Of a stretch of DNA of 64,000 bases, positions 1 to 64,000 are shown in pieces; within the stretch, counting starts at the first letter, position 1, and every line of letters starts with the position of its first letter. Under the pieces are notes generated by a model. That model saw only the letters and a list, made by a program, of their open reading frames with translations. It made no database searches and had not been told where the DNA came from. A program made the position numbers and the translations under genes. Source of the DNA: Asterochloris sp. CNOR1 (Eukaryota > Chlorophyta > Trebouxiophyceae > Trebouxiales > Trebouxiaceae); the NCBI GenBank assembly GCA_963969365.1, contig OZ017762.1:558001-622000 (forward strand), read 5' to 3'.

Positions 1-623
1 CTTGAAGTGGTGCAATCAGACTCAGCAGCAGGCCTGAACTGAGTGCCAGCTCAGTCCAGATCTCTTCGCAAGCCTGGCATCCGCAGCTGAGTCGCGTGTG
101 AGCACACAGAGGTATTGACTGGTGCCAGCTACCTTTTGGCACACAAGCATGTTGCTGCTGCGCAGGTCAGGCTTGCAGAACATGAGAGGATCGAAGGAGA
201 GGCAGCCTTGACAGGAATGGTGCACGCTCACAACAGCAGCATGTCTCTCTACCTCTATGTATCCTGCTCTGGCTCTGTGAACGTGCCAGCAGACGAGCTC
301 AGGGCCTGCACTGTGTCTGTACAGGCCACCCCTGTTGCATGATGCACTGCAGGCACTGCTGATGCGATCCCACAAGCTTTGGGTGATCTGCGGCCGCAGT
401 TCAGGTTCCCATGGTTGAGCTCTGCTTGCAGGGCAGAGGTCACCTATGAAAAAGAAAGGCAAGGGGAATGCATGCGCTCAACTTTGAAGCGCCTCTGTCG
501 TATTCCAAGCCGGTCCACACTGAATCTCGTGTAGCCTGCTGGGGAAGTGTATCAGGCCTGTAGTCTTGTTGCAGTTCTGGCAGCCCTCTGAAGGCATCGA
601 GCGGCAGCAAACGGGTACCCCAT
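1..623. other. Left edge, no supported gene
   Basis: No convincing exon is visible. A minus-strand reading near 160-240 contains a short stretch faintly like a kinase catalytic loop, but the key His and Arg are absent and no other kinase motif is near. The last 100-150 bases presumably hold the promoter of the MYND gene that starts at 624; I see no recognisable box. Confidence 0.4.
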
Positions 624-2081
624 ATGGTGGCCAGCCAGCCCTCTCTCAGAGCGAGGCGTGAGATTGATCTCTTGGTGAGGTTGGTCAGCACAAGGCCTGA
701 TGCTGAGGTCTGCAGCCCTGCAAGCCTCGCTCACATGATTCCTGACGGACTTGCAGACTCTGGTGTACCCACAAGGTTATCCCCCAGAGCAGTTTCCGCC
801 GGTGCAACCTGGCACCAGCTTGGGCGAAGTATGTGAGCTGATCACAACACAGGGAGCCCGCGTGTTTGTGAGGTGTGCACTGCTCCTTGGGCACCCAGTG
901 CAGGCCTTTGTTTGGCAGGAAGCTCATCCCATACACAATGGTACGCTGTGGCTTTGAGTGACCCATCAGCTGGACCTGGATGACTGCAGGGGCTACTGGG
1001 GTAGGAGTCTGGTGTTGTGTTTTGAGTGCTTCTACTTCAGAGATCACTGGGTAGTCCGCCAGCTTCAGGTCAGTCCCTCACAATCACCTTGGACTCCCAG
1101 GGCCACCCAGCAGGGACAATTAAAGATGGTGTCAGCGCCAGCACCTCTGGCATCCACACCTCTCGCCATGTTCTGGTCTGCTGCAGTGTCATGCTGAGAC
1201 CCTGCACTATTGCATTGACCCATCAATGCAGCACCTGCACTGTGTTGGTCACTGCATGTGCTTCAGCTGACATGACATGCTCCCAGCTGGCCCTGCTGTG
1301 CTGCAAGTTTGCAAGGCGGGCTGGTGCATCCTCCAGGCTCCACTGGGCCCTGTAAATGCAAAGATTACCAGGATCATGTGCAGCCTGTGCTGCTGTAGCT
1401 CATGGCTGCCAGCCTGCTTTGCACCCTGCTGCTGCCAGCGTGCTGACAGAGAAGCGTATTCGCGCTTTGCAGACTAGATGTCATCCTGGTCTGCTGCAGG
1501 CGCGCAAGCTGACAAAGACCAGGCTCACTGCCGAGCTTGGCAACCCCTTGCTGCTGCTGCCCCGCCAGATCCACCTGTACACCAACATCAAGGAGCTCAT
1601 AGAGAGCATTGAGGGCAGCTTTGAGGCAGCACCTGCGGCCCTGCAGTGGTCTGTATGCAGCTTGGGGCCCAACCACATCCAACTGCCACGGCAGGTTCCC
1701 CATCTGCTGGCTGCAAGAGCCACAGCAGCCTCCCTGGGAATCCAATGCCCGGAGCAGCTGAATCCCGCCAGCCAGCCTGAGGGCCCCGGCTTTGAGCTGG
1801 TACTGGTGCACGAGGATGGAGGGGGCAGCGGCCACGATCAGTGGGTGCTTGAGGGGCGGAAACTGATGGTCAAGTCCCTGATCGGGCTGCAGCAGCTGTG
1901 CAAGACGCCCATGTTCCGCTGCTGGGTGTGCAGCAAGCCGGCACTCCAGATCTGCGGCAAGTGCCACCGCGTGGCCTTCTGCAGCCAGGAATGCGGGCAG
2001 CGGGGGCTGCAGGCACACCTGCAGGAGTGCAAACCCCCTGCTGCCCAGGCAGCCCTTTCAGCTGGGGCCTCCAACAGCTAG
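624..2081 (+). CDS. MYND-type zinc-finger protein
   Basis: Four exons fit: 624-674, 757-872, 1041-1068 and 1500-2081, giving 258 residues with phases that agree. The C-terminus carries a MYND zinc finger, with Cys pairs in CWVC and CGKC followed by FCSQEC, a final His and Cys, and then a short Ala-rich tail. MYND fingers bind proline-rich partners or act in chromatin and methyltransferase proteins; here there is no SET domain, so a scaffold role is an inference. The middle (about 90-190) is an unassigned globular region without a known motif. The ATG at 624 is chosen because the first exon joins cleanly to the second; an upstream non-coding exon cannot be excluded. Sequence at 1430-1465 looks like a weak copy of the start of the last exon. 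Confidence 0.7.
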
Positions 2082-2522
2082 CAGACTGGCATGTAGACAC
2101 ACCTGTGCTTAGATGAAGACGCTGCTGCATGGTTGTGTGCACTGCAAGCAGTGGCTATGAACTTTGGCTGCTTGCCCCCCCTTCCCTCACTTCCTCTGCC
2201 CTCTCTGATCACCTCTTGAGACCTCACATGTCCAGCACTGCGCATGAAGGTCCCTGCATGACATATCTGGGCGGAGCATGACTGCCTGGAGTGGTCCCCA
2301 AGGGGCCTCATCATGCTCTGGTTGAGCGTTGCCCTGCTTCTAATCGAACGAGCTGTCTTGTTGACACGCTACAGCATTCAAATCACTCATCAGCTGAAAA
2401 CCGACTCAAGTGTAATACTTCATGTTGGCGACATCCTGCTCCCCAGAGGTCCGCCCAAGGTACCAAGGCAAGCATGACTGATGCCTGGACTTGTCTGATC
2501 TGAGTTCGGGCGGAGCACGAGC
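2082..2522. other. Intergenic, head-to-tail
   Basis: Separates the MYND gene from the ankyrin/RING gene on the same strand. It should hold the 3' UTR of the first and promoter of the second. A pyrimidine-rich run lies near 2175-2215; nothing else stands out. Confidence 0.4.
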
Positions 2523-8500: not shown

Positions 8501-11500
8501 GGTCCTTTTGTGGAGAGTTGACCAAGCTGGAGAATTTGCAGAAGCATGGCCCAGAAAGCTTTGCAGGCCAGAGCAGCTGTGGACAGCACTACCTGGTCGA
8601 GCACTGCAGGCATTCTGGAGGGTGCTGTCTGTGTTCCCTTACCTTTCCTCAAGACGATCGGTCCAGAACAACCCCATGCCGCCCATGTGGGTCTCAGCTG
8701 CAAAGCTGCCCTCTGCCACACCACTCTGCAGGCGCATCAGGCGGGCATCTACAAAGCAAAGAGGGGCACTGCCTGATGGCCTCGCTGCTCAGGAGGGCTG
8801 GTGTCAGCAAAGTCACTATGCACATGGGTGGGAGCATGCTCTGACTTACACTTCTTCTTTGAAGGACTTCTGGCCCCTGCCTGCAGGTGCACCAGGTGGG
8901 CATCTCCACCAAGTATGGGCGCAAGGTGTTAACGCGCCTGGAGAAGGTGCAGGCCGTGAGGGACGAGCTGTATGCAGCCAAGTTTGAGCAACCTGCCAAC
9001 ATGGGGCGCTTGCGAAAGGCTCTTGATGACGCTGCTGCCTATTCGACACTCATCGACGCCAGCTTGCTGGCCAGCATCCAGGTAGGAGTCAATGTGGATT
9101 TGGTACGGTTTGATGAAGGTCTGAGTACATAGCAAGCAACAAAAAGCCCCCAACCCCACTGAAATTTGACCTTGACTTGGCTGAGCTGCTGCGATCTCAT
9201 TTCTGTTTATGTCAAAATTCCTGCAGGACAGTACATCGCACTGCCTCTCAGCATGAGCCAGCATGCCTTTATTTCAACTCTCAGTGTGGCCACCATCTTG
9301 CTTGACCTCTCATACCAGCCTGTCCATGTGGTATGGTCCAAGCCGCTATGTTGTCTGCTGCCCGCCAGACAGCATGTCAGGCGCCCCCCAAGGCCTCCTG
9401 CTTTGCGCTCTGCACTTAGTTGTGTTGTCCAGCACTGCGCTTCCATCGTCTTGGCGACAGACTTGACTGTACGTGCTGGGTCAGTCACATCGTGCACGAC
9501 CTACAGGCCAGTGAGGCAGTGGCTAGACGGGGGTGCCACAGGGTTGGACGCTTGCCAGTATGCTTGAAGCCACTCAAACAGTTTGTACCCTGCAAGACCT
9601 ACTGGCCAGCTAGGAAGTTGCTGCTGTGCCAGAGTTGAGGCTGCTGCCATGACTTGTCAGCAACTGATGACCTGGCAGCAACTGACTGCCCCCCGAGGCA
9701 GATGCTTGACAGGAGACCTGGGGTCCCATCTCTGCTTGACAGGCCACCTGAGCAGGGGCAGGACACTGCAGGACCTGGTGGCCAGCGAGACAGCAGCGAG
9801 AGGAGGGGACCTGGGCGCCACCATGTCAGGCGAACCCTGGGGAGCGCCATTGTCGTCAGGGAACGGCTTCAGGCTGCAGGCCAATGGGACCAGCTCGACA
9901 GTGTTCAGGGATCACGGGCTGGGAAATGGCGCTCTGCCGGTCGAAGGACAGCAGCAGCAGGGCGCCTTTGGCGGCCACCAGCTGCTGTCGCTGGGCAACA
10001 ATGGTGGCTATGACTGGCACTCCCAGCTGGGCCTCTTGCGCACCTCCTCTGCGCTGGGTGTCAGGTACACTACACCATTTGGCTGGGCTACTCCACTGGA
10101 CTGTCCAGGCTTGAGTGTTTGCTGCCGAGGGCAGCCTGCGAAGACTTGCTGAGTGCAGCCTGTGAAGCCTCGCTGAGTGCAGCAACTGCATGTGGGCACC
10201 CACGGCTGCATTGTTGAGGCTGGGCCAGCTGCGCACCTCCGCGCAGAGCATCAGGCTGGGTAGCTAGACTTGGCTGGACATTCATGCAGCAGGCTGCTTT
10301 GGTTGTGGCTGGCCAGTGCCCTGCACAGACTACGGCCTTCTCATCACGAGGAGACATGCATGGCCAGCTGCAATCAGACGCAGGCGGATGCATCTTGCTG
10401 ACATGTTTTCTGATGCCTGGCTGCAGTGCCAGTCCCAATGGCTTTGCGGACCGCCTGGGGCAGGGTGCTGTGCAGCCCAGCTCGAGTGCTGCCTTCAAGG
10501 CTGGGTTTACGCAGGACCCGGCCGTGCTTGCAGCCTCATATGAGCAGGTGGGTGCTGCGCAGGTGGTGCTTTGCTGGCAGCGTGGCTGTTTGACATGCGC
10601 TTATGCGTGGCGCACAAGCCTGGCTGTGCTTGCAGTCTGGTATGAGTAGGAGGAGGTGTGCATCTGACCACCCTTTGGCACACAGGCTGTGACAAGCGCT
10701 GTGACTGGCGCAGTCAGACCTGCACAGGCGCCTGCCACGTCTGCCAGCGTGCTTCAGCACAGCGCTGCCAGGACCTCACCCACTTACCGGCTGACATGCT
10801 GCATGTTGCTGCAGGCGCAAGTTGGCCCCACTGGCAGCAGCACGCAGGCGTTCTACAGCCCCCAGCCCCACTGGGAGCGCAGCCAAGCCGAGGTGGGGGC
10901 TGCACTGTGGCTTACTGCTGTTCTGCGCAGGGCTGCGTGGCAATGATCCTGCCGGAACAGCTGGGTCCTCGGGACCTGCTCTTCAGCATGTTGCGCTTGG
11001 GCGTTGATGCCTGCCGCCTGGCACATCACTCCTTGGCATGTCTGACATGTATCTGACAGTGTGCAAGTCCCGAGCTGTGGCAATGGTGCCTGGGCGTGGC
11101 CCACATCTGCCCTGACAGGAAACTCTCAGGGAAAGAGTCTGGCCACAGTGTTTGAGGAGGCAGCTGCATCTGCTGGGAGACGCCAATGCGTGCTACAGTC
11201 TGACCAAGTGCCAAGGACTCGGCCTGACCTAGCTAAAGCAGCCTCCCTCTGTACCTCCAGGGTGCAGCAAAGTTTGCAGGGTGGGGATTGGCACACATGC
11301 ATGCTGCAGTCTGCCGCAGCCATGGCAGCTAGGGCTGGCTTGGCAAGGGCTGAAGCCTCCCGCTGCGCTTGCAGGCCGCAGCTGAGCTTGCAGAGTGGGA
11401 GGATGGCGACCATGACCAGGAGTGCGTGGTGTGTTGGGCGCAGCGCAAGACCGCACTGTGCATGCCCTGCGGCCACATTGCCATGTGCAATGCCTGCAGC

Positions 11501-12092: not shown

Positions 12093-13735
12093 ATGCACTC
12101 AGGCGCATGGAGGATCGCTGTGACAACTCTGGTGCTGGCTGGAGCAGGTGGGGCCCACAACCGCACCAGCACTTCGCCAGTGGAGAAGCCTCTGTCCCAC
12201 CTGGAACCATTCTGTCTCCTGCAGGCCTCACGGCAGTGGCTGGAGCTGTCTGCCCAGCAACAGATTTCCTCATAGGCTGCTGGGAGGACAAAGCGCCTGG
12301 CACCTTTGTGTGGCGTCCCACCAGTGCCCCCTGCCAGCGCAGTGCCCTGCCATGCTTCAAGGAGCAGAAGCAGCCCGTCGGCATTCTGATGGTAGGGGAC
12401 TCTGTGGATCTGAAGATGTTGGAGGCGCTCTGCACCCAGGCCAAGGGCAACTTCAAGGCAGACATCGGCGGTCCCCAGCACTACGACACCTTCCACGTCT
12501 GCGAACTGCCCAACCTCTACATCATGCACGTTTTTGTGCCGGGGGTAAGAAGCTTTTCCAGGCAGGCACCAGGTTTTGCCCCTGAGGAGTAAGACTGAAA
12601 CATTGCTGCCTGTCATGGCTGGAGCAGCACAGTGACTAGGCGCCTGCAGCTGCAAGGCTGCAAAGCTATGCAGACAGCAGTGTTGCACATCTGCCCTTGC
12701 TCCCCGCCTGTACTGGGCTACAGGTGCTCTTATGAGGGCGGCGCCTAGCCCACTGCCCGGTGCCTGCCTGGCTCTCACCTGAAGGCTTTAGGCTGCACAA
12801 AGGAGCTTTCCACGCTAAACACCCAACCACCTTGTCATGCCTGCTCAATTTGCCACAGGTTGTGTTGTAGGTGCACAGAAAGGGTGGCACTCAGCACAGT
12901 GCGGATTGCCTGCACCCAAAATGCTCTGACCGTAACCTTGTGTACTCACCTGGGAACTGCCGCAGGTTCACGTGGGCCCCTGCTGCCTGCCCTGTGCGCC
13001 ACAACAATGAGAGCTGCATGACTGGCTGACAGGTGCCTCTGCATGGGCTGTGCAGGTGCACACAGTTGACCCCTGCTGGCTCTCCTTGCACCTCACGAAA
13101 GTGCTTGCAGAGTGTTCCTCAGACGCCAAGTCTTGGCCCGTGTCAATGCCTGCTGAATCGCCAGCTGCTGGGAGTGGCTGACAGACACCCTCTGCACTGT
13201 GCTGCAGGTGCACCCAGTGGGCCCCTATTGGCTCCCTGAGCGCCACAACAACAAGAACTGCATCACCAAGTTTGGGGAGGCAGCCACCGAGTTCAAGAAG
13301 AAGATGCAGCCCAGCGTGGTGATGGTGGCTTCAAACCTGTGGGACATTGTCAGGCTTCAGTATAAGGTCAAGAGCCCAGATGATCCTAAGCTGACCTTCC
13401 TGCCTTCAGCTGAGATCGTAGAGTGGCAGGGGCAGCTGGAGGACCTCCTGGTAGCAGTGGAGGGCACCTTCCCCAATGCCAAGTGGATATTCAAGACCAC
13501 CCCCCTCCCCAACCCCGAGTGGACTGCCTGCTCGCGACATCCTGTGCAGGCCCTGAATGTGGCTGGCGCTGCAGTGGCCTCTGGCAGGGGATGGCGGCTT
13601 TCTGATGCAGCTGCTCTCACTGCATCCTTTGGCAATGCCTCTGACTACCTGCAGGATATGCAGCATCCTCAGGCATACATTTCTCTGACAGTGATCAAGA
13701 TGATTTTGCATGACGCCTGCTCAACGTTGTCATGA
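12093..13735 (+). CDS. SGNH/PC-esterase-like secreted protein
   Basis: Three exons, 12093-12147, 12225-12544 and 13208-13735, give 300 residues. The first 20 or so residues form a plausible signal peptide with a hydrophobic core ending in Ala/Gly. A GDS motif sits at about 76-78 after a hydrophobic strand, and a D-x-x-H followed by Pro at about 275-278, the spacing expected of a Ser/Asp/His SGNH triad as in PC-esterase and Cas1p/TBL-like acyl esterases. A hydrophobic strand ending in Asn-Leu-Trp-Asp in the middle could be the block carrying the oxyanion Asn. Substrate is unknown; glycan O-acetyl groups are typical for the wider clan. Several Cys in the N-terminal half suggest disulfides. The second intron (12545-13207) holds decayed copies of the third exon's start. 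Confidence 0.65.
12959..13090 (+). repeat. Two decayed copies of the exon start at 13208
   Basis: The copy at about 13024-13090 repeats intron sequence before the acceptor (TGGCTGACAG), then GTGCAGGTGCAC and CCCC. The copy at 12961-13020 repeats GTGGGCCCC, GCGCCACAACAA and AGCTGCAT. Both have lost the reading frame. Confidence 0.8.
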
Positions 13736-14079: not shown

Positions 14080-21083
<7,004 letters not shown>

Positions 21084-42600: not shown

Positions 42601-45600
42601 CCAGCACCTGGGTGCAGCTCATAATCTTCCTGTCCGCCACCTCGTCTGACTGTGTGTCTTGCATGCTCAGGTGCGCATGGTGTTCCTGTCGGCCACGCTG
42701 TCCAATGCGAGTCAGTTCGCGGGGTGGGTGGCCTCCCTGCACTTCCAGCCCTGCCACGTCGTCTACACTGACTACCGGCCCACGCCGCTGCAGCACTATG
42801 CCTTCCCCGTGGGAGGCAGCGGCATGTTCCTGGTGAGCGCCTGCTGCAGCAGAACTGACTGTCTGAGGGCAGTGATGGAACAGTGGTGTCACGCCTCAAG
42901 GCTCTGCAGCACTGCCAGGTTCCTGAAAGCCCTGCTGCAAGATGGCATGTCCATGTCCCGGCTGTCTGCGGCGCTGCGGCTTCCTTCCTTATGGGTGTGG
43001 CAATGGCATACTACTGGTGATCCATAGTCATTAGCAGTGCCAAATGCAGCCCCCATGGGGCAGGACACCCTTCAGCAATGAGCTACATTCTTACCTCCTA
43101 GCTGCGTTTCCGGTGAACGCAGCAAGTCTCATCTTGGATGCTGCAGTGCGGCCTACTGCCATCTGAGGTGGATGACAGCAGTGCTGGCAGTGCTCCTCTC
43201 CCCCACTACTTCATGCTGCATTATCAACTTGAAGCAGCCCCATGGGTTGCGTCTGTGGAGCTTGGCTGCTGCTGTTGCATGGTGGCCGTGCTGCACCCTG
43301 TCCGTGCGTGCTCTTTCTGCTCGTTGCTGGGGTGCTGGCAGACATCAGCATAAATCTGCTGCAGCGCAGCACTCCATGCTGGCCCTTGCTCTCATGTGGG
43401 CGGCCTGCCAGATGGGCTGCCCCAACAGACTTGCAGCAGAGCCTGTCCTGGTTCATCTCGTGCTGCTATGCTGCAGGTGAAGGACCAGTTTGGGAACTTC
43501 AAGACTGAGAACTTTGCCGAGCTGCGGATGAAAGCCTTTGGTGCAACAGACAGTGCAGAGTCCAAGGCTGCCAATGGCATCGAGCAGGCTCCAGCCAGGT
43601 GTGTGCATGTCCCTCTGAAGTGCTTGCAGCTGTCTCCTCAGGCAACAGTCATGCTGTGCCAGCTGGCTCTCACAGCCATGCTGCGTGGGACGTGAGAGCC
43701 CTGGCCTGCATGCTGTGCCTTTCTGATGCAGCAGGCCATGTTCCACACCTGGCTGACAGTGCTGCAAAGGGGCACTCCGCAGAGTCACTCATCAGGTCCT
43801 CCTGGTCATGGCAGCCGCAGGCTCAGGAAGCCACAGGCAGAGAGGAGAGGGCCTCCCCGTGCTACCACCTGAACCAAGTGCTCACCTTTTGTAGGGGTAC
43901 AGAGGGTGCAGGGGCCAGGGCAGCAGAGGAACAGGGCAAGGGGACTTTGAGTGCTTCAAGCAGCCTTGCTCAAGGTCCTTCTGCAAATATAGCAGCAGGA
44001 ACAATGCAGTCGCTGGCAGGCGTAGTTCACCTGATTACTTTCTGCAGGGATGATAGCAGAGGGGTCAAGGGTTGCGGAGCGGGCCCACAGGGTGCAGCTG
44101 TGCTGTGTATGGGCCTCACCATCACCCTTGCCTGCAGAAGCAGCAACAGAAGCAGCGCCTTTGCTTTCAGCAAATTTACACACCCACCACTCGCTCCCTG
44201 CAGGGATGGTGGCGGTGGCAGAGGGGCCAGGGGCCGCGGTGGCAGAGGGGACAGGGGCCACGGTGGAAGGGGTGGTGGTGGCCGCGGCAGTGGTGGCGAC
44301 AACACCATGGCAGCTGACATCTACAAGGTCCTGCGCGGCATCAAGGGCATGAAGGGGGAGCCTGTCATCATCTTCAGCTTCGCCCGCAGGTGGCTCAGAT
44401 GGTTGCTTGTGACAAGACTCAAAGGTGTTGATACCCCATATCACACGTTATGCAGGTTAGGGTGCTGCTTAGAAGCAGTTGGTAGCTCCTGCAGGCTGCG
44501 AGTCAGGTGTGCACCAAGGTGAGTGTGGCATCTGGCCGCCACTCAAGGCATTTTTGGGGCATCGCTGGCATATCAGGGAAGCTTATTGTTGTGCAGAGCT
44601 TTGGGGAGAGGTCAAGGTGGGCACATGTTCGATGACTTTGCAGTGTGTCATGGTGCCAGACAGCATCCGGGGCTTGAATGAGGGCCAGTAAGTGTGCCCA
44701 CATCTGCACACCGGTGACTGCCACAGCTGCACACTGCAGCTGAACATGTGCGCTGGCCCCATGCCAGGTGGACTTGTGCCGCGTCTGCAGGGAGGCTGGT
44801 CTGGTACATCGCCTGTCCTAGCGGGCCGCCTGCTGCTGCTCAGAGTGTGCGGGATACATGTCGGCATCTCGCTGTGCTATTGGCTCGCCCAGCCCTGCAT
44901 GCTGCCTGCTGTCTGCAGATCGGCCATACACCTGCCCCCAGGCACTCAGGACATGATGGCTGCCACTGCCAGTACTGTGAGCCTGGACGCTTTCAGTTGC
45001 ATGCTGAGGGCCTCACAGCAGTGTGCTCCCCCTTGCAGGGAGTGCGAGCAGTATGCTCTCTTCATGAAGGGCAAGCAGGACCTGGACTTCACCACTGATG
45101 AGGAGAAGGAGGCTGTCAGGGAGATATTTGAGGGCGCCCTTTCAGGTGACTTCTGCCTTGACGTGCCTGAACCCTGATGGAACTGCAGCCTGCCCGTGGT
45201 AGGCCGCAGCAGCATGCATTGCGAGGTCATGTTCATGCTCACCTGCGTGTGATGCCCTCTGAGGTGCTCATGGTTGCATTGTGCCTGGGCACACAGCTTG
45301 CCCCTTTTCGACTGCTGCAACGGCGCAGCTGGCATCAGAAAGCAGTTGCACCGCTTGCCCTTGAGCTGCTGTGGCCTGCATCATAGGGTGCCCTTCTGGT
45401 CAGCACAACTACAATGAACCTGCAGCACAGGAAGCCGTTTCAGCAGCTCAGGCCTTGGTTGGACCATGCTTTAGCTGCATGACCTGCTCGGGCAGGCAGG
45501 CTGCAGTGAGCAGAGGTTGAGGCTCAAGCTATTGTCAGCATCCAGGATGCTGCTGTAGAGCCCTGTGACACTCTCAAAAAGGTAGCAGCCCCTCATGCCT

Positions 45601-48600
45601 GCAATTGCAATGACAGAGGACCAATTTGGAGGTCAGCCTTCAAAAGCCAGAAGCAGGCTTTGCTGCCTTGCACTGCAGAACGTTTTCTTGCCGGATGGCA
45701 CAGCATTTGCCTGGCATCTTGGACCCACTCCTTAAGCTCCAACATCAGAAGACTCCCCTGCCCCAGACTTGCCTCACTCTTGCTCTGAATGCTCCACAGC
45801 CTCAACTGTCTGCACCGCGGAGCTTGTGCGTGCCCTGCAGTGCTGAAGGATGAAGACCGCGAGCTGCCCTTCCTGGGCAACATGCTGCCCCTCCTGGTGC
45901 GCGGCATCGGCGTGCACCACTCCGGGCTGCTGCCCATCCTGAAGGAGGTGGTTGAGCTGCTCTTTCAGGAGCAGCTGATCAAGGTGGGCCCCCTTGTTCA
46001 GGGAAGGGGTTCAAGGGCTCTGCTGGTATATTGGGGGTGTGCCAGTTGTACAGTTTCACTGTGATGGTTATTGAGCCGCCGCGTCAGGCAGCACGTCAAA
46101 CGGGAGCACTGCTGTTTAAGAGTGCCCTGCGCAGAAGCCAAGGCACTGCTGCTGCTGTCCATCAGGACAGGGGTGGTCAAAACTGCTTTGAGGAGCAGCC
46201 ACTCCAGGTGGGTGCCTGACATAAGGGGGCTTGGTGCTCATGCTGAGGGTGTGCATGGGGCACAAGCGTGCTCAGTGCAAGTAATTGCGGTGCTGCCTTA
46301 GGGGTAGCAAACCAAGTGGCGGCACTGCCATACTATTGCCCTGTGCAGCAGTCATGTCGACTGCTACTACGTCTGAAGGTGGTCAAGCTCTTGTTACAAC
46401 AACAGCTGGTCAAGGTGAGGGCACAGCAACAAGGGTCGCACACAAATGTTGCAGACGGCATTTGCTGAAGGTGCTGCCAAAGCGTTGGAAGGCACATATG
46501 AGGTGTTTGGGCGCAGGACTTCTGCCTGGGGCGCAAGCGACTGTCATCGCTTGTCCCAGGTTGCCTTACAGCTACCTACTGAATAATCCATGTGTTGCTC
46601 TGTCAAGCCTGCACCACAGCCCACATCTTTGGTTCCATGACTCTCTGGGCCCCTCCTCCCTGCAGTGCCTCTTTGCAACCGAAACCTTCGCCATGGGTCT
46701 CAACATGCCAGCCAAGACCTGCATCTTCACCAGCCTGCGCAAGTTTGATGGTGTGGCCACCCGCTGGATCGAGAGTGGGGAGTACATTCAGATGAGCGGG
46801 CGGGCGGGGCGCCGAGGGAAGGACCCCTTTGGCATGTGCATCATGATGGTTGATGAAGCAATGGACGAGGCCACCTGCAGGTGAGCATCTTTCAGCGTCT
46901 GGCGGCGGAGTCTGTGGTTACAAGGCGTTGTCAGGCAAGTACACCATGCCACTTTGATGAAGCAATGAAAATGGCCAGATGCAAGTGATTCTTTGGGCAG
47001 CTGGGTCGCTGGCAAGTGGCTTGCGCTGAGTTGTCCATGGTAGGGTCTTGGGTCCTGGCAGCAGCAATGACGCCGCCGCTTCCAATGGGCTTAGCATGTC
47101 TCCCAACGCACCGCTCCAGCTGCCTTGAGTCCGTCACCATGTGCTCTGCAGCTGCTTTCTCCACTCACCACGCAGGATTGGTCTGCAGGGCTGTCCCTCT
47201 CGCCCCCCCCCCTACAAGCTGACCTGTGTCTGCACCAATGCGTACCACTTAGCCTGACGCCTCCACTGATCATGCGCCTGCAGGCAGATTCTACAAGGCC
47301 TCTGTACTGCTTGAGCAGCTTGATTGATATGTTTGGCGCCTCCTTTTCACAAACCACCATGAGCCAACCCCTTCCCCATGCACTTGCAGGGAGATGACCA
47401 CCGGAAAGCCTTCCCCTCTAATCAGCTCCTTCAAGCTGACCTACTACACTCTGCTCAATGTGATGCGGCGCCTGGAGGGCAGCGGGCACGACATGGAGTA
47501 TGTCATCAAACGCTCCTTCTCCCAGTTCCAGCATGAGCAGCAGGCAGGCGAATCTAAGGCTTATTGGGGTGTGCCACTGCCAAGGAGGGGTTAGGGTTGT
47601 CATAGCATTGTATGATGGCTGCCATCTTGCTTGCTGATGATCTGGGGTACGCCGTCAAACACTGCTTTGACTAGCAGTGTTGTCATTGTGAAGCACAGTG
47701 CCAGCTGGCCCACCCAAGATAGCCTAGGGCACAAAGCATAGCTGACACTGGAGGGTCGATTGGGCACTCTGATCAGGTCTGCTGCGAGCCTGATCTGGGG
47801 TGGCATCACAGCTCAGCACCAAGCACTCAGAGTGTGCGGGACCAACAAGCAACAAATGCACTTGCCAGCCTCACGTCAGGTGGCACCCTCCTGCTCAGCA
47901 ACAGGCAACGGAAGGCATGGGTGAATTGACCCTTGGGCGACTTCCCAGTAACTGTTGCTGCAGGTGCCCAAGCTCCAAGAGGAGCTGGAGGGCCTGCAGA
48001 AGCAGGCGGACAACCTGGGCGCCGCCAGTGAGGCCGCCCTTCAGGAGTACCAGTCGCTCAAGCAGGTAACACGATATAGTCATGGCACAAGTGCTGCAGC
48101 CTCAGGATGCCCTTGGCCAGCTCCTCTGTCTTACAGCAACGCAGCCAGCACCAGCAAACGTGTCAGTAGAAAGCTACACGCCATGAGACAGAGGGTCAGC
48201 TTTGCATGATTGTATCTGCCGCTTTGACAGTCAGTCTGCCAGCTGCGCATTGGGACATGCCACCTGCATGCACAGCAAGTCAGTCCCACTGCTCTTAGAC
48301 AACAGCATCTCCTTAGCAGCAGCTGACACTGGCCCACTCCTGCATGCAGCCACCAGCAACAGATGCCCTCACACATGGCTCAGCCTGACATTGCTCAGTG
48401 CCAACAACCAGCCAGCCCACCATGCTGTACCCATCTTCATCAGCTCTCCATCTGCTGCAGGAGATTGCGCAGCACAGGCGAACCCTGTGTCGTGCAATCC
48501 AGCAGCCGGACAAGTGCCTGCACTTCCTGCGGCCGGGGCGCCTAGTGCAGATAGAGGAGGGGCAGCTATCCTGGGGGTGGGTGTGAAGGCACAGAAGCTG

Positions 48601-51600
48601 ATCAATTTTTGGGGAGTGGTGGCTGTGATAATGAGATTGACCACCTGGCAAGGGACATCGAAGCTGCTGCGGGCCGCTGCTGCGGTGCAACGCTGCTCAG
48701 CTTAGATTAGCTGCAAGGGGGTGTGGTGCACAGCAACAGAAGGCTGCTATCAATCGATTGCTGTGTGGCTGGGTGGATCTACTGAGCGGCACAGTATGTC
48801 GCCTCTGCACAGGCCGCGTGCCGTGCCTATGCATGACTACAAAACAAGGGGTCTTGCTGGTGAGACCTTGACCAGGCCAGCTTGTGAAAGGTCGGCTGGC
48901 GTCTTGACCCAGCTGCGGAGAGAGCTGCCTCCTGCTGAGGACTACTTAGGGGCTAGGCTCATATGATGCCATGACCTGCTCCCCTTTCACAGCAGGAAAC
49001 TGGCAAAGCGCCTCACCACAACCCCCAGAGTCAAGACTGACAGCCAAGCCCGCTTTGTGCAGGTGGGGGGTGGTGGTGTCTGTGATGCGGCGGGCGCTGG
49101 GGGCCAATGCAGGCGCACCCGCTGCTGAGGGTGGCGCGTCTCAGGGGGTGGCAGCCGAGTACCAGCTGGACCTGCTCCTGGGGTGCACCCCTGACAGCAT
49201 CAAGGGTGAGCCTGCCCGGCAGGTGCATGCAGCCCATCCAGCTCAGGGCATATGCTACTGGCATAAAAGACCACTAAGAGAGCTGCAGCTTGTCTGTCAT
49301 GTGCATCCTGAGACAGGTCACCCCACGGTCAGCCCTGCCTGCAGCCGCCCATACGGTCCTGCCTTGTTGCCCGCTGCCTGGCCTGGCTGGTCCAGCAGAG
49401 GAGCATTTGCCTCGTTGTGCTGCGACAGGCTGCCACAGGTGCTGGCTGCTCCCTGCCTGATGGCTCGCTGTGCGTCTGCCTGCTGCAGCTCAGAGACCCT
49501 CTGCCTGCACAAGGCTTTGTCTGCCTGCTCGACCCAAAGCTGACGCCCCTGCTGCTGAACCCTTCTATTTGCCTATTTGCTGCAGTGCAGAAGCCCTTCC
49601 CCAATGGCAAACACAGGGGCAGCCATGTTGAGTGTGCTCCCAGCCCAGCTCACCCCTCTCCCTGCCTGCCTGCCTGCAGCCCAGAAGCCGCTGCCCGCAG
49701 CAAAGACGGGTGCCGCTGAGATGCATGTGCTTCCTGCCAGGCTGACAGCGGTGACAGCCCTCTCCTCCCTGCGCATCTCCATCCCCACAGATTTGCGCAC
49801 GGCGGAGGCCCGAAGGGCCACCTGGCTGACCATCAAGGCAAGTCGCTGGCCTGAGCTTGAAGGGGGACCTGTTGCTGGTCCTGTCCAACTTAGCAGCTGA
49901 ACATGGGACCTGAGCACTGCGGAAGCTTGGAGACGCACGTGGCTGACCATCAAGTGGCACTGCTGGCAGAAGGCTGGTGTTCCATGCCGTCCTGGTCAAG
50001 TTGTTCGCTCTGCATATTGCTTCCTGCCATTTGGCAGAAGAGTTGCTGGCCTGACTGCATTCAAGTCAGTGCCTGGCCTGAGCTCAGGCTCCTGTTTTGC
50101 TGTGCATTGCAGCCAACAGATGCCCAGCTGTACGCTGGCTTGCAGTCATCTGACTGCCAGATGATTTGAAGGAAGGCTGCTGGCAACAGTTCCTGCACAG
50201 CAGGATTTAGCTCGCAATGTTCTGTGCTCTGGGAGAGTCAACCTGGCTGACCTGGAAGATGGGCGGCAGGTCATGCTATGCTGCCTGCTTCGTACAGGTG
50301 ACCTCTGAAGGTTGGCTGCTGTGCAGGACCTTGATCGGCAGTTCCCTGAGGGCATCCCTCGTCTGGACCCAGTCGAGGACATGCAGATCGAGGACGCAGG
50401 GATGGAGGCCGCAGTGCGGGCCATCGAGAAGCTGGAGGGCAGGCTGGCTGCCAACGAGGTGTTCAAGGTGGGCTGGTTGGGCAGCTGCCTTCAAGAGGCT
50501 GTTCTACCATGTCAATGAGCCCCACTCCAGGGTTCTTCACGCGCATCTGCTGAACAGCTTTTGCTCAGATGAATTCCCTATACAAGTTCTGTTGGGGGTT
50601 CAGCGCTCCCAAATCAGGGCCACTCCGCATAGTCCTCCCCCCAACTGTGCTACCTATCAAAGTCTGCTTGTACGGCCGTCAGTGTGGTCTTTCAAGGTGC
50701 GATCTATGCTCATGCATGGGAGCAGCACAGATGCTTGCCAGGACTCGTGCTGCAGGTCCCACAGACACTCCTGGAGGGTGCAACGGGGCTCCCTGCAGAT
50801 GCCCGCCATGCCGGGCTCATCTTGACGACGCTTTGGCTTGACGCTTTAGTTCAGGGCCACCTCACATTGTGCGCGACCGCAGGAATGCACCAGCCTCAAC
50901 AGGCTCCTTCTGGTGCATGGCCCAGCAAGGTCTTGGTGGCTGTGACCACTCAATGGGTCTGTCTTCTCAAAGCAACTTCAAGCAGAGGTGACAGTCCTCC
51001 CCTGCAGGCGCAGCGGGATTCTGCTCGCTACATCTCCTTTGAGCGCAAGGCCGCTCTGGCGGAGCAGGCGGAGGCCCTCAAGCGCCAGATCAAGGAGAGC
51101 CAGCTCTCCAGCTTCCGCACAGAAGCCAAGGCCAGGTGAGCCGCTGGCTGGCAGCTGTGGTAGGGCCAGCAGGCGCGTTCCATGCAATCCTTCCTTCTTA
51201 CAGTCCAAGGCCAGCTTGGTTGCCCGCTGGCAGCTTCTGCTGCATTGGACACATGCATTCTTTCATGTTGATGGACTGACTCAGCTTCCATACAGTCGGC
51301 AAGGGCCACACTGGGCGCTAGCTGCCTAGCTTGGGCCTTTCTCGTTGCTGTGGAATGGCCCTTCTGCTTCGGCACAGGCCAAGCCAGGTCGATTGCTGGC
51401 ATGCATCTGCTGCTGGCTGCAGCTAGGTCAGACAATAGCCATTGTTGATGTATGTGTGGTTGCGTGCGCATGCGCAAGGCAGCATCTGAGCTGCACAAGT
51501 CAGACCAGGTGAGTCACCTGATGTCAGTCTGTCCCTCGTAGGAGGATTCATGTCTAGGTGGACCTGCTGTTTCTGGCACAGGCCGTCATCATGTGGGCTG

Positions 51601-53399
51601 CCGGCTCATAGCTCTGACGGCACCAGGAAGTGTATGCCCATGCCGTGCGTGCATGCAAGACACACCTCTCTTTGTTTTGTCCACCCCCATTCTTTCCTGC
51701 CCCCGGAAAGGCAGCACTCATTGGAAGTCTGTTCTCATCTGTCGACTCAGCAACCCAGCCTAGCTTGGCTGCCAGCAGGTCCAGTCTATGCTGCTGGCAA
51801 AGCCAGTGTAATTTCAATAGACTGGTTTGGTGCAAGGATAGACAGTGGGTGATCAGCTGCTGCGCTGAGTGTGTCTTCTGCACACTCGATTGCCGCATCT
51901 GTCAGCCCGCTTGTCAGACACCAAGTCCTGTGCTGCTGCAGGGCAATCGTGCTGTGCAGGTGGGGTGTGGTTGATGAGAAGGGCATTGTGCAGATTTTAG
52001 GGCCACACAGCCTGTGAGACAGCTCTGAAGCCCAGCACTCAAGCCACCTGCCGTTGCTGCTGCAGGACAGCGGTGCTGCGCAAGCTTGGCATGATCGACG
52101 GCGAGGGCGTGGTGCAGATCAAGGGGAAGGCTGCCTGCGAGATCGACACTGCGGACGAGCTTCTGGCCACAGAGCTCATGCTGGACGGCACCTTCAGTGG
52201 GCTGGACAAGCACCAGCTGGTCGCCCTGGTGTCGTGTCTCGTTCCCGGCGAAAAGTCACAGGTGGGGCCTCAAGTGACCCCGAGATGTGATGACCACACC
52301 AGCTGCTTGCCCTCAGCTTTCATTGTCCTGTCAGACACTCATGAGGAGGAACTCTGAACATCTGCAGTGGCTGCTTCGGCAAGCTGGACAAGCACCAATG
52401 GGTGCCCTGCCTTGGTGTAAAATTCTGGATGACTCCCTGTTGTGCAGGAACTAATCCGCCTGACCACGACGCTGTCTGAGCTGCTGGCGAAGCTGCTGAC
52501 AAAGCTGCAGGAACCCCAGTCTGCCGTTGTGTTGTCTGGTGCCCTGCAGCAGCAGGGCACCATCATCTGACCTGGACTGACCCACGCCGACCTCTTATTA
52601 ATCTGCTGCCCTGCAGGAGCAAATTCATCTGACCACAACGCTGTCCAAGCCGCTGGCCAAGCTGCAGGAGACAGCGAGGATGATTGCAGAGGTCAGCACA
52701 GACTGCAGGCTGGACGTGGATGCGGACGAATATGTGGACACATTCAAGCCCTTCTCCATGGACATTGTATATCAGTGGTCCCAAGTGAGCTCATCTTATC
52801 GGCTTGAAATGCTGCGCATGCAATGACAGCAGCACTGGCCTTGGCAAGACCACTGAGGTCCACTAGGCCAGCTGTTCAGCAGGTACAGCATCTCCTGCGC
52901 AGCGTAGGTAAGTCATGCCTCTGGTGTCATTGTTACTGGTCCTGTGCCGTCTCACACACCATCCCAAACCCAGTCTTGCATGCTTGATTTGTCTGCTGCC
53001 CCGGTGGCGCTTGGCATCCCTTTGGAGGATTTCAACAGCTGTGCATTGCAGGGGGCCAAGTTTGGCGACATCTGCGCCAACACGGACAAGTTTGAGGGCA
53101 GCGTTGTGAGGGAGATGAGGAGGCTAGATGAGCTGATGCGCAACCTAGAGCTGGCAGCCAAGGTGAAGCATCTGCACAGCATGTTGCAGAGCGCCCTGAC
53201 ACAGCAAATCAGTTTGCCTATGGCATAGCCAGAATATGCTCCTTGTGTGATGTCACTCACAGAAGAAAGCTGGACAGCCTGCTTGACAATTGTTCTGATG
53301 CTGCAGGTCATTGGGGAGGAGGACCTTGCCTCAAAAATCGCAGAGAGCGCCGACACCATTCGACGGGACATCATTTTTGCAGCCAGCCTGTACATCTGA
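39610..53399 (+). CDS. MTR4: SKI2-like RNA helicase MTR4 (nuclear exosome cofactor)
   Basis: Twenty-five exons, summing to 3,150 bases and 1,049 residues: 39610-39732, 39936-40047, 40375-40466, 40719-40780, 40871-40931, 41227-41366, 41832-41892, 42194-42247, 42671-42832, 43477-43598, 44204-44389, 45039-45145, 45841-45983, 46666-46880, 47390-47543, 47964-48065, 48461-48576, 49063-49205, 49680-49837, 50327-50467, 51008-51135, 52066-52261, 52617-52784, 53052-53162, 53307-53399. Motifs: AHTSAGKT at 119-126, DEVH at 211-214, SAT at 242-244, [10 protein letters not shown] at 517-526, and a C-terminal DSHCT domain ending FAASLYI. It feeds RNA 3'-5' into the nuclear exosome within TRAMP-like complexes. 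Between the two RecA domains (about 331-357) sits an RGG-rich loop. Introns 1, 15 and 19 need GC donors. Many introns hold exon-edge copies. Confidence 0.95.
41350..41530 (+). repeat. MTR4: Exon-6 end of MTR4 in three tandem versions
   Basis: The true junction (41350-41402) is followed by copies at about 41416-41473 and 41475-41530. Each has an ATGC, a purine-rich donor-like part, then CCTCTGC and GCTG. Period is about 60 bases. Confidence 0.75.
46158..46428 (+). repeat. MTR4: Two decayed copies of the MTR4 exon-13 end
   Basis: Copies lie at about 46144-46213 and 46373-46428; the originals are the last 65 bases before 45983. The second reads [14 protein letters not shown] against [15 protein letters not shown] in the exon and keeps a GTGAGG donor. 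Confidence 0.85.
46955..46998 (+). repeat. MTR4: Decayed copy of the MTR4 exon-14 end
   Basis: Shares TTGATGAAGCAATG with the exon end at 46850-46880 and continues through a GCAAGTGA in place of the donor. Confidence 0.8.
49580..49641 (+). repeat. MTR4: Decayed copy of the MTR4 exon-19 start
   Basis: Begins TGCTGCAG, then CAGAAGCC and a GCAAA, repeating the exon start at 49680. About 95 bases separate copy and original. Confidence 0.7.
49910..50090 (+). repeat. MTR4: Two decayed copies of the MTR4 exon-19 end
   Basis: The copy at 49910-49958 shares the exact run TGGCTGACCATCAAG. A weaker one at 50044-50090 shares CTGACTGCATTCAAG-like text and TGGCCTGAGCT from the intron side. Confidence 0.8.
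52373..52420 (+). repeat. MTR4: Decayed copy of the MTR4 exon-22 end region
   Basis: Shares GCTGGACAAGCACCA exactly with 52200-52214 and continues with TGCCCTG and TGGTGT. Confidence 0.8.
52440..52520 (+). repeat. MTR4: Copy of the MTR4 exon-23 start
   Basis: From the acceptor-like TGTGCAG at 52441 it repeats about 65 bases of the exon at 52617, reading [12 protein letters not shown] against [12 protein letters not shown]. It stays in frame to a TGA at 52567 without a good donor. It could be a cryptic or dead duplicate exon. Confidence 0.85.
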
Positions 53400-53527
53400 C
53401 CAAATGCACTTGAGCATGCTGAATGATACGAATGAATCAATTGTCTGCTATTCAATGAAATTCCCCAAGCTGGATGAAATAGCAGCTGAAATCTCAAGCG
53501 GGCCAGACATGTGCAACGACAACTACT
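53400..53527. other. Convergent spacer of MTR4 and GT14
   Basis: AT-rich spacer of 128 bases between facing stops. Confidence 0.5.
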
Positions 53528-56500
53528 TCATTCAAATTCCAGCGTGGGTGCAGTGTGTCTTCTGCCAGTGCCTGCAAGAACCTGTGGTTCCATGTGCTGC
53601 ATAAACAAGTGCCGGGTTGGAATCTGCTGAGCAAGCGACATGCCAGCATCAGCCCCACTGGCTGACTGAGCCTCTAAGGATTGGGCAGCCTGAGAACCAG
53701 AGCCAGGCCCAGAATCTCCACATGTCCACACAGTGCTGTTCTGCGGGAAGGTGGGCCCCTGAAAAATGCTGATGTTGGCAGGGAGCCCACGCATGAGCTC
53801 CAGCATGGGCGCTGCCGCATCCTCTTTGAACTTCCTTGCAAAGATGGAGCAGAAGCTTGGCATGAAGGTGTAATTTCCTCCCTGCAGCTGACAGCCGCTG
53901 CTGCTGCCCCCCAACAGCAGCTGAGGCGTGGTGAACAGCTGTGCGGACATGCTGATCGCGTCGGGGAACATCCAGCACATGTTGTCATCGTGTGCCCTGA
54001 TCTTTTGCAAGAGCGCATCATTGACCTCTGCTGCCGGGTACGTCTTGGGGTGGGCAGGCGGCGCTGGCAGCCACCACTCCCACTCATCCCACGTCAGGGA
54101 TCCTGTGCAGTCCGTCTCGTTGGCCAGGCCCTTGAACGCCAGGAAGGTGGACAGCTGCAGGCAGGGGGTGCAGGGCAACGATGTTGGGTGTGCGCTGTGG
54201 CAGAACATGACATCGAGAGGCCAGGCAGGAGCAGGGCAGCAGGTGCCAGAAGCGAGCTGCAATGATGTGACCCAGGCATCCCAAGGCTGAGAAAGTGAGC
54301 ACAACCGACCAGCAAGGTAGACAGCTGCAGCGCAAGGGGTGTCAGGTAGGGGATGACTAAGCTGATGCAAGGTGGTGACCAACTGCAGGAAGGGGGAGAA
54401 GGCAATGTGAAAGGCTTTGCGCAGTCTCAACATGAGAAGTGAGCAGGCCAGGAGGGTGGGCAGCTGCAGGCAGAGGCAGATACAGGGCGTCAGGCAACAC
54501 CGCCAGTTGTGGAGATATGCGATGGCTGCAGAGGAAAATGGTGGCGGGTCAGGATCCTGCACTGAGTGCAGAATGCTGGTCAGCTGCAGGCAGGCAGCAA
54601 GACTGTCAGACAACTAGCTGCACCAGAAGGAAAGCTACGGTGTCAGACATAGGAATGTGCGCAGGCATGGGGGGGTAAATGATGGGTTGCTGCCGTATCG
54701 CAGTGCGAAGTGCAGGGCATGCACAAAGTGTCATGGCTGTGAAGACATGCAGCAGCAGAGCCCTCACATAGTGCTCGTCGCTGAGGCACCCCAGCCAGTG
54801 CCCGTCAGTCTCCAGGGTGCAGTGCTCCTCAAAGATGCTGCTGATGTAGTCATCAGCCGCCACCAGCTCGGCATGCTTCCGCTTGAGCCCAAACCTGTAG
54901 ATCATATACTCAGGAGCTGCAACCACAGCTCTGCAAAGCACATTGGGCACAGCTGCACCTGCGGCCCACAAGGCCTCCTCAGGACAGCCTGCCCTGTTCT
55001 TGCACATGGTGCCCGTCGTCCTGTGTAAGCAGATGAGGCAGAGGGAAGACGACGACTTGGTAAGTCCAGGTCAGCAAGCTATAGATGCGCAGTGGTCACG
55101 CACAAACGAGCTGCTGGCACAAGCTGTGCACAGCCTCAACAGCAGGCGCAGCAGGCGTGGGGATGCAGATCAAGGACAAGCCAGAGCAGGCCAACCAAGC
55201 CAGCGCGCTTAGCATCATCTTCTGTGCTAGTCCAAGTTTGTCTAAGCAGTGAATGAGCTGGACAGCCAGCCACGCACCATTGTGAGTTCTTTCGCCACAC
55301 GGACTGGTCGAAGTCCTCGCGCCACATCCTCCAATTCCACCTGCAAAGGACACCAAAGGAAGCATCAAGTTCATGCTGCTGCTTTCAAATAAGACAGGGC
55401 AGCTGTTGGCACGGCCCGACGTTGACAGCCTCATAAACACATCAAACGCCTGCAAGCTGCCTCATTTACAGTCCTGCTCAGCCCAAATAAAGGTGGCACA
55501 CCTGCGCTTTGTGCTGTTCAGCCTTTTCTGTGAGTGAGGCATTGCCATGTGAAGGTTTGACCAGGCAGCCCTGCTTGAGTACCCCATTGCGGCGCTCGTG
55601 GCACCATCTGCTGCCTCAGCCCTTGTGCAGCAACAGACCAGCATAGACAGAGGCCAGAAATGGCCTTCAGCACACATCAAGCCTGTGTCCACCCACCGTT
55701 GCCAGCAATCAGTCAGTCAAGTGTGCAGTCAGGTTGGCCACCTCCCATGCCTTACGCTGCTGACCCAATGGTCCAGCTGCAGCCTGTTGCTGAGCTGGGC
55801 AGATTGATGTCCAACTCGATGTGCAGTACAAGCCCACACCACACCTTGCCAGTTCCACAAACTGCTAGGCAGTGTGTGGTGCACGCTGCAGCTCCCGCAA
55901 ATGGCGGCCACATGCTGGGTCCTACCTGTAAGGGTTGGTGTCCAGACCGGTGTCGGGGCAGGCATTGATCCTGCTTCTGGTGTCCTGCAGCAGCTGCTGG
56001 TGCACCATGGCGGGCGGGTAGATGGGCACGCAGGACTCTGCAGGGGTGGGCATCAACTTGTGAGAGGGGACACCTACTGACCTGGTCTTGTGCTAGGCTG
56101 GGGCTCCAATGGGGTCATGCAACGTCACTGTCAAGCAGCTGGCTGGCACGGGGAGTGGCGAGGCAACAGGCCATGCAGGCAGCGTTCGGACAGGTTTACG
56201 GTTGCGGAGCGGTTGGCAGACACTGTAAGGGCAGCCCAGCTGCCTGACTGCCCTGCCCAGCAACGTGCAGACCGCAAGCAGCGCTGCAGGCCGAGCCCCA
56301 TGCCTGGCTTGCGATGCTTCATCCCACCTGAAAGCTGGATGAAGAACTGATTTAAGGGGTCCTGAAGCGCTGCCATGATCATCCTGCAGGCCACAAGGAG
56401 GACCTTGACTGGCGAAACACCTGCTGTGCGGAGTTGCAGGGTAGTCTGCAGTGTGCATTGTCACTGTCACTAAGGTGGTGTCCTACAGGAGTGGTAAGCC

Positions 56501-62123: not shown

Positions 62124-63974
62124 ATGGAGCTGGAGATCAAGGTGCAGGGCATGACCTGCAATGGCTGCACCAGCAGAGTGCAGGACACCCTCCAGGTGAA
62201 GAAGCACATAAGCCTGTCTGCCAGCAGGCCACCATGCAGGGCTCTTGGGCAGGCCAACATGTGAGACATCAGCAAGCCCTGGTCAGCAAGCAGGGATCGC
62301 ACTGACATTGGCAATCCACAGAATTTTTGGCAAAGCTGCTCTTAAGCGGGCCCATCAGAACTTCTGGGGGCCCACCATGGGCACGTCAGAATTCCTGATG
62401 AGCTGTTACAGGGTCCAGCTCAAGCACAGCCCAGCTGTGTATCTGACCTGCTGCAGGGGGTTGAGCGAGAGCTGAGCTTTTCAATGCGCTTTATGCAGAA
62501 CAAGGCTTCCATGCTGGTTTGTCTCTGTACTGCAGGCCATGGTGTTGCCATGTCAGAGCAGCTCAGAGGCCATTTGACATGCCACAACAATTCAGCACTG
62601 CACCATGCTTGTCTGAGGACTGGATGGCAGCTCTGAAGCAACAAGGCATCATCTCAGCACCTGGTGGTGATGTGGCATGACGACCCAGCGAGATGCCCAG
62701 TATCTTATGGCAGGGCATGGGAGGTGTTGGCAAGGCAGTGCCGTAGCAGCAGACAACCGATTCTACATGAAGCCACACCCTGCTTGTGATGCTGCTGCAG
62801 GACAGGGTGGAAGCATTGGACTGAGCAGGCCCAAGCGTTCCCATGCCCTTTCAGCCAGGCAGCTCAATCAGATTTGACCAAATGGGTTCCTGGGCTGCTT
62901 CAGGGCATGGATGGTGTTGGCAAGGTGGAGGTCAGCCTCGCCACAGGCGTCGTTAGCCTGGAGGTCATTGCGGAGGACCCCATGGACGCTGCATTTGTGC
63001 AGGTGAGCCAGCGTGCAGCAGTGCTGTTGCTGGTCTCAGGCTCAGAGCTTTTGTATGAGCCTCAGGTGTGCTGTCAATGTGTGCAATGGCATGAGCGACA
63101 GGTCAGTGAGGGAGAGGGCTCTGCGCCTCGGCACACGCCTGTGTATCATTAGGGAAGCTGTCGGGCAGGGTCTTGTGCTGCATTTGTGCAGATCGGTTTG
63201 CAGCAGTGCTGGGGCTCCAATGGTTGAGGCTGCATCAGCCTGGATCACAAGGTGGTCGAAGGGGGGGGGCTTTAGGGAAATGCAGGGCACAGTAGGATGC
63301 TGCCTTGGCGCAGGGGAGCTTGCAGCACTGCTGCCGCTCGGATGCTCAGTGCATGTACTGATGTGAGGCCCCGGGTGGTGCTCAGTATTTACAATGGCTC
63401 GAGGTACAGGGTGCTGCAGGTAGGTCATTGCGCCTCTGCAGCTGTCTGTGTTACTAAGGTCCTGGAGGGCTGCAAGACATGCGACCCATACACTTCATGC
63501 CTGCAAGGGAGCTCATGCGGCTCACAGTGACCAGAGGAACTGCAGGTTGGTGTGGCCCTGAAACTCCTTGGTCCTGGATCTGTATCAGCCAAGTAGACAA
63601 AGCTGATGCTGCTGGTGCCATGTGCTGCCTTTCCCCTGGCAAGGAACGCTTCAGTGGAAAGGTAGCTTGAGAAGGAGATCACTTGGGCTGCTGAGTATGT
63701 GGGGCAGGGCAAGCTTCCTGTATATCGTGCTGCCGGTGCCCTCAAACAGCTGCATGGCCAGTCAGGGAAGCCCCTAAGCTGCTGGCATGCCACTGATGTT
63801 GCAGCAGACACTGGTTGAGCCCTGCAGGCACTCAACATTCCACTGTGCCGCTGTCCTCGATTCTTCTGCATTCACTGGCTGCAGATGCCTCGCCTGGTGG
63901 AAGCCATCAGGGGCCTGGGGTTTGATGCCAAGGCACACTTTGAGGATATGGGTTGGGAGGCAGCCAGCTTGTAG
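62124..63974 (+). CDS. Small HMA-domain metal-binding protein
   Basis: Three exons, 62124-62195, 62904-63002 and 63885-63974, give 86 residues. A single heavy-metal-associated domain fills the protein: a first strand, the metal loop GMTCNGC (CxxC), helix 1, a GVGKVEVSLATG turn, and helix 2 with LVEAIRGLGFDA. The fold binds Cu(I) through the two Cys and hands it to P-type ATPases or enzymes, as ATX1/CopZ chaperones do. It lacks the Lys-rich patch of ATX1, and a 12-residue acidic tail follows the domain, so a copper chaperone is likely but not proven. Coding makes up 261 of 1,851 bases; the introns hold copies of the second exon's edges. Confidence 0.88.
62529..62745 (+). repeat. Two decayed copies of the HMA exon-2 start
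   Basis: The copy at 62711-62745 shares CAGGGCATGG and GGTGTTGGCAAGG with the exon start at 62901. A shorter one at 62530-62560 has CTGCAGGCCATGGTGTTGCC. Confidence 0.85.
63174..63216 (+). repeat. Decayed copy of the HMA exon-2 end
   Basis: Shares GCTGCATTTGTGCAG exactly with the exon end at 62988-63002 and, past the lost donor, GCAGCAGTGCTG. Confidence 0.9.
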
Positions 63975-64000
63975 TTTGAGCAGGACATCTGTAAGCTTCT

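What the first reader, a model, noticed from the sequence alone, without database searches (positions are those of the whole stretch)
1..64000. Introns seeded with decayed copies of neighbouring exon edges, across at least seven genes
Some twenty intronic stretches in unrelated genes repeat the last or first 30-70 bases of the adjoining exon together with its splice site. They occur singly or in arrays of up to five, on the upstream or downstream side, and have lost the reading frame. Each matches its own exon only, so no mobile intron element explains them. Seen directly: the pairings. Known: intron gain by tandem duplication of an AG/GT-containing segment has been proposed. Inference: this lineage has a repair or replication habit that duplicates exon-intron junctions, lengthening introns and filling them with decoy splice sites. 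HSP70 seems exempt, which would fit selection against mis-splicing in a highly expressed gene.
Basis: partly seen in the sequence, partly recalled or inferred. Interest (0 to 1): 0.88.

Follow-up and report, generated by a model that had tools for sequence, protein, structure and literature searches.

The report
Introns lengthened by decayed local duplications
In this alga-like genome fragment many introns contain worn-out copies of the edge of the neighbouring exon, most simply explained as ordinary short DNA duplications that crossed a splice site, did little harm because splicing removed the extra copy, and then decayed.

Summary
Self-trained spliced gene models are supported by Pfam and by alignment of one gene to human MTR4. 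Local direct repeats are in great excess: 49 pairs at offsets 20-1000, against 0-2 in each of six far-offset scans and five shuffles. Exon edges match their own intron far more often than introns of other genes (score >=26: 12 of 126 against 0.5 expected; reverse complement 0 of 126). Exon centres (0 of 44) and far edges (0 of 83) do not. At score >=28 there are 25 junction pairs in 17 of 82 introns of seven genes. HSP70 is not exempt. Splice-like sites show no sense-strand excess in introns. Simulated untargeted tandem duplication with neutral decay can give the observed junction-to-intron ratio and identity, but the ratio depends strongly on the assumed divergence. Unexplained: acceptor AG kept in 11 of 12, few aligned exon bases, no young long copies, and patchy units. 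Junction-crossing tandem duplication is known; the density here is the notable part.

The parts
39610..53399 (+). MTR4/DOB1 RNA helicase gene; 25 of its modelled exons were used in the tests; carries 10 of the about 24 copies at score >=28
   Evidence: DSHCT, MTR4_beta-barrel and DEAD domains; alignment to human MTR4, E 2.1e-263; copies
46151..46212 (+). Copy of the last 58 exon bases plus 5 intron bases of the exon ending at 45983; a second copy lies at 46377-46417. With permissive extension the whole 225-base unit is covered
46954..46988 (+). Copy of exon end 46850-46880 plus 4 intron bases
41428..41511 (+). Two adjoining copies of the junction at 41366/41367 (9 exon plus 34 intron bases; 22 exon plus 21 intron bases)
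   Evidence: the second also
49911..49954 (+). Copy of exon end 49794-49837 (last 15 bases identical); a second copy at 50050-50084 includes 20 intron bases
49476..49512 (+). Copy of the acceptor and first 20-24 exon bases at 49680; a weaker copy (score 27) with 67 exon bases ends near 49653
51931..52019 (+). Copy of the acceptor and 54-77 exon bases at 52066
52443..52496 (+). Copy of the acceptor and first 49 exon bases at 52617, 81% identical; the gene finder took part of it for an exon, but human MTR4 aligns without a gap there when it is left out
52383..52409 (+). Copy of 52201-52228, near the end of exon 52066-52261
12972..13086 (+). Two abutting copies of the acceptor and exon start at 13208 (spacing 93 bases)
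54309..54594 (-). Four copies of the acceptor and exon start at 54154 (54309-54346, 54374-54405, 54447-54476, 54569-54594); all keep CTGCAG
8726..8753 (+). Copy of the acceptor and 22 exon bases at 8887 (ankyrin gene)
10219..10240 (+). Copy of 10026-10047, 17 bases inside the end of exon 9880-10064 (ankyrin gene), score 29
10619..10653 (+). Copy of exon end 10517-10547 plus 4 intron bases (ankyrin gene); unit covered 98 of 102 bases
31771..31840 (-). Copy of the last 51 exon bases plus 5 intron bases of exon 31916-32060 (desaturase gene), read as one copy with a 13-base insertion
   Evidence: two rows
29953..29972 (-). Copy of the donor junction of exon 30215-30395 (desaturase gene), 13 exon plus 7 intron bases
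35563..35588 (+). Copy of the acceptor and 21 exon bases at 35631 (DEAD-box gene)
62711..62735 (+). Copy of 3 intron plus 22 exon bases at 62904 (HMA-domain gene), 92% identical
15115..15150 (-). HSP70 gene: copy of the last 36 exon bases of exon 15299-15483, 75% identical (score 27), contradicting exemption
17234..17265 (-). HSP70 gene: copy of the junction of exon 17298-17426 (27 exon plus 8 intron bases, score 26)
23161..23219 (-). Copy of the acceptor region of exon 22977-23047 (9 exon bases plus intron), MinE-like gene; this intron is not among the 82 tested
27642..27855 (-). Wholly intronic direct repeat (offset 112-114 bases, 77%), covering 102 of 114 bases: the same kind of repeat without an exon
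29340..29541 (-). Wholly intronic direct repeat, 85%, offset about 150, next to the acceptor of exon 29220-29332; covers only 52 of 149 bases
33478..33586 (+). Tandem repeat, 52 bases x 2.1, 92-93% identical, just upstream of the DEAD-box exon modelled at 33590

Best explanation
The copies are fossils of ordinary short local duplications, probably mostly head-to-tail and roughly 60-250 bases, in the genome of a green-alga-like eukaryote. Shown: they are direct, local (under about 600 bases), match their own exon, and sit on both donor and acceptor sides. Shown for about half of the junction pairs: similarity runs on past the splice site into intron sequence, so genomic DNA was copied, not mRNA. 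Inferred: duplication can strike anywhere. Inside an exon it would damage the protein and is removed by selection. Inside an intron both copies decay and soon become unrecognisable. Across a splice site it is tolerated, because splicing from the outermost authentic sites restores the old mRNA and the extra exon edge becomes intron. The conserved exon then serves as a reference against which the decayed copy can still be recognised, which makes junctions look special. The result is intron lengthening.
For: Direct orientation and locality. Own exon: 12 of 126 non-HSP70 edges at >=26 against 0.5 expected, reverse complement 0 of 126; exon centres 0 of 44, far edges 0 of 83. Similarity continues past the junction: mean z 2.1, z>1.64 in 17 of 33 pairs (partly circular, because some starting alignments already reached into the intron). 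Nearly whole units in 5 of 30 pairs: 225/225, 98/102 and 117/124 at junctions, 132/145 and 102/114 essentially within introns (extensions counted at p<0.1, a loose criterion). The same repeats occur without exons: 20 intron-intron and 8 unassigned of 62. Exon-exon pairs are not enriched (3 against 4.4; at score >=34, 0 against 2.4, P 0.09). Copies decay as noncoding: mismatch rates 0.186, 0.152, 0.257 by codon position. Simulation with t = 0.22 and 0.25 and indel factor 0.12: ratio 1.1 and 2.3 (observed 24:14), identity 0.80 (observed exon part 0.79), edge touched 0.75 and 0.64 (observed 22 of 29).
Against: The simulated ratio is very sensitive to the divergence that I chose: 0.65-3.5 over the six settings and 0.62-24, so agreement is weak evidence. 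Many pairs are only patches, e.g. 54 of 169 bases at 81% identity with no detectable similarity beyond, which tandem duplication plus even decay does not give. Aligned exon bases are fewer than simulated: median 22 in the 29 exon-intron pairs against simulated medians of 34-47. Acceptor AG is kept in 11 of 12 copies against 0.46-0.58 in single-age runs, although four of the 12 come from one intron. No long junction copy (>=40 columns, score >=30) reaches 85% identity, 0 of 9, whereas steady accumulation in the simulation gives 64%. Unassigned DNA has fewer pairs than random placement gives (8 against 15), the 60.8 kb array being left out. Recognisable repeats cover only 2507 of 34922 intron bases (7.2%).
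Confidence: 0.68

Rival explanations
1. A junction-directed process: a repair, replication or transcription-linked mechanism of this lineage preferentially duplicates exon-intron junctions.
For: Junction pairs 29 against 15.4 by circular shift; 22 of the 29 exon-intron pairs reach the exon edge exactly (my count of the per-row list; the script's printed tally read the wrong column); few aligned exon bases; exon centres 0 of 44.
Against: Differential decay can give the observed junction:intron ratio (parameter-dependent). The same repeats occur wholly within introns and in unassigned DNA. Donor and acceptor sides are both hit (13 and 12 of 25 pairs).
Confidence: 0.14
2. Patchy templated insertion: repair synthesis copied 20-70 base patches from up to about 400 bases away (polymerase-theta-like end joining, recalled) rather than true tandem duplication.
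For: Many pairs are short patches in longer offsets, e.g. 25 of 190, 26 of 429, 54 of 169; offsets within one array are irregular (172, 228, 309, 429).
Against: Five of 30 units are covered nearly end to end; two copies at 12972-13086 abut; inverted patches, which such repair can also make, give no junction match (own reverse complement 0 of 126 at >=26).
Confidence: 0.13
3. Selected decoys: the copies, above all the acceptor copies, are kept because they regulate splicing.
For: AG kept in 11 of 12 acceptor copies; four decoys in intron 54155-54767 score 11.6-14.3 against 12.8 for the real site.
Against: Donor copies keep GT in only 6 of 13. No sense-strand excess of splice-like sites in introns. 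The exon-derived part has decayed at first and second codon positions.
Confidence: 0.04
4. The introns themselves arose by duplication of an AGGT-containing exon segment (Rogers model), and the copies are their two ends.
For: Tandem duplication is described as a source of introns (PMC3443670, PMC4974935, passages read).
Against: That model puts the upstream exon's tail at the very end of the intron and the downstream exon's head at its start. Here the upstream-exon copies lie inside the intron (e.g. 393-434 of 682), followed by GT and intron sequence, and the downstream-exon copies lie inside it behind their own acceptor.
Confidence: 0.01

Closest known systems
Tandem duplication crossing an intron-exon boundary in the potato RdRp gene (PMC4974935; abstract and passages read)
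   Same: A tandem duplication spans the 3' part of an intron and the 5' part of the next exon; part of the old exon becomes intron.
   Different: There one recent event created a new intron by using a cryptic donor; here many old events seem only to lengthen existing introns, on both donor and acceptor sides.
[quoted passage not shown] recalled, cited in PMC3443670 and PMC4974935; the paper itself was not held)
   Same: Frequent local duplication inside genes that changes intron structure.
   Different: I could not read it; the passages that cite it do not mention decayed exon-edge arrays inside existing introns.
Intron gain by duplicated AGGT segment (Rogers 1989; Hellsten 2011; seen only as cited in PMC4974935 and PMC3443670; Hellsten not held)
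   Same: Tandem duplication silenced by splicing.
   Different: The copies are not at the two ends of a new intron.
Drosophila novel introns from regional tandem duplication (PMC2891723; passages read)
   Same: Exonic duplications tolerated by splicing; the authors suggest that the footprint might have been lost with age.
   Different: Here footprints are visible in 17 of 82 modelled introns.

Membership tests
Local tandem duplication | Copies in direct orientation and close together | tested here: met
Local tandem duplication | The two copies abut, so similarity fills the whole offset | tested here: inconclusive
   Nearly filled in 5 of the 30 pairs tested (225/225, 98/102, 117/124, 132/145, 102/114); the other 25 less or only patches
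Local tandem duplication | Similarity crosses the splice junction into intron DNA | tested here: met
   17 of 33 pairs with z>1.64, mean z 2.1 (partly circular)
Intron gain by AGGT duplication (Rogers model) | Upstream exon tail repeated at the intron's 3' end and downstream exon head at its 5' end | tested here: not met
   Copies lie inside the intron with their own splice site
Intron gain by AGGT duplication (Rogers model) | Intron absent in relatives | not testable with these tools
   No relative found
Introner / mobile intron elements | One repeat family at many unrelated loci | tested here: not met
   No distant match in self-BLAST at E 0.01; far-offset scans 0-2 each. Tested within this window only
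Tandem exon duplication / alternative exons | Copies keep an open frame under selection | tested here: not met
   Mismatch rates 0.186, 0.152, 0.257 by codon position; indels in the aligned part of 8 of 25 pairs

The most novel reading that the evidence does not exclude
In this lineage junction-crossing duplication is a main way introns grow, and its tolerance reveals a splicing rule: the machinery takes the outermost authentic sites (exon definition) even past several acceptor decoys of equal strength, so that new junction copies are purged while young unless they can be ignored. This would account for the kept acceptor AGs, the few exon bases carried and the lack of young long copies. Against it: recognisable repeats cover only 7.2% of intron bases, so most growth would have to be too old to see.
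Probability: 0.2. Interest if true: 0.72.

Novelty: new variant of a known kind. Interest (0 to 1): 0.5.

Why it matters
Intron growth without transposons is poorly explained. Chlamydomonas and its relatives have conspicuously long introns, and the advantage of that length is called unknown (PMC8226300, passages read). If decayed junction copies are general in this lineage, conserved exons become a clock and a record for local duplication in introns that would otherwise be invisible, and rates, ages and the strength of selection against mis-splicing become measurable.

Tried and rejected
No whole genome is held for the window, so the genome-wide test could not be run. Scans with three window protein pieces confirmed no relative in viral contigs (two scans) or genome contigs (one scan); no sister species could be used to date copies. 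Chance or patchy composition was rejected by shuffles, far offsets, reverse complement and mismatched introns. A mobile family within the window was rejected. HSP70 exemption was rejected. Accumulation of decoy sites was rejected in bulk. The first two gene-finding runs over-split or joined genes and were replaced. The first traceback listing was wrong for most rows and one search failed; one search replaced them. Fifteen peaks inside the 60.8 kb array could not be traced and were dropped; pairs starting in 60.7-61.7 kb were dropped. In one search the printed 'gap 0: 0 of 29' tally read the wrong column; from the per-row list I count 22 of 29. Simulations left the splice signals unconstrained; one search constrained them. 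The eight paper searches found 4, 0, 24, 110, 2, 6, 4 and 0 papers (of the 24 and the 110 only 15 each were listed); I read passages of four papers and saw no description of dense decayed junction copies. That is not proof that nothing is in print.
Full report
What the window is. The window is eukaryotic DNA, 58% G+C; no genome is held for it. A self-trained spliced gene finder converged on a donor CAG|GTGAGY and an acceptor CTGCAG|G. Of ten predicted proteins given to Pfam, nine match: ankyrin repeat, MinE, TPT-family transporter, fatty acid desaturase, DEAD-box helicase, MT-A70, MTR4, core-2/I-branching (GT14) and HMA; the gene at 12107-13688 has no match. HSP70 was identified from motifs and its translated model. 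MinE and a plastid-type desaturase suggest the green lineage; that is inference. The MTR4 model aligns from residue 88 to its end with human MTR4, so most of its exons are well supported. Exceptions: exon 3's donor is set too early, since the Walker A residues follow it in frame, and two mini-exons that I kept (43147-43167, 44495-44518) fall in stretches where human MTR4 has a gap.

Noticed in passing
60858-61259: Array of an 81-base unit (with a 162-base higher-order period), about 4.5 copies, 71-82% matches, in a region without a confident gene model.
   Followed up: no
28944-29057: 27-base unit repeated 4.3 times inside a desaturase intron.
   Followed up: no
40719-40781: MTR4 exon 3 probably ends near 40781 rather than 40753: the reading frame continues through the Walker A motif to a GTGGGT donor.
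   Followed up: partly
46166-46207, 52448-52486, 54310-54324: An ab initio gene finder reads intronic copies as small exons; automatic annotation of this genome may contain false mini-exons for this reason.
   Followed up: partly
gene models, 82 introns: Four modelled introns begin with GC and one ends with AT; some are probably model errors (e.g. at 7609), others may be true GC donors (49838).
   Followed up: no
63177-63191: A 15-base exact copy of the end of exon 62904-63002 (HMA gene) lies downstream in sequence outside the tested introns.
   Followed up: no
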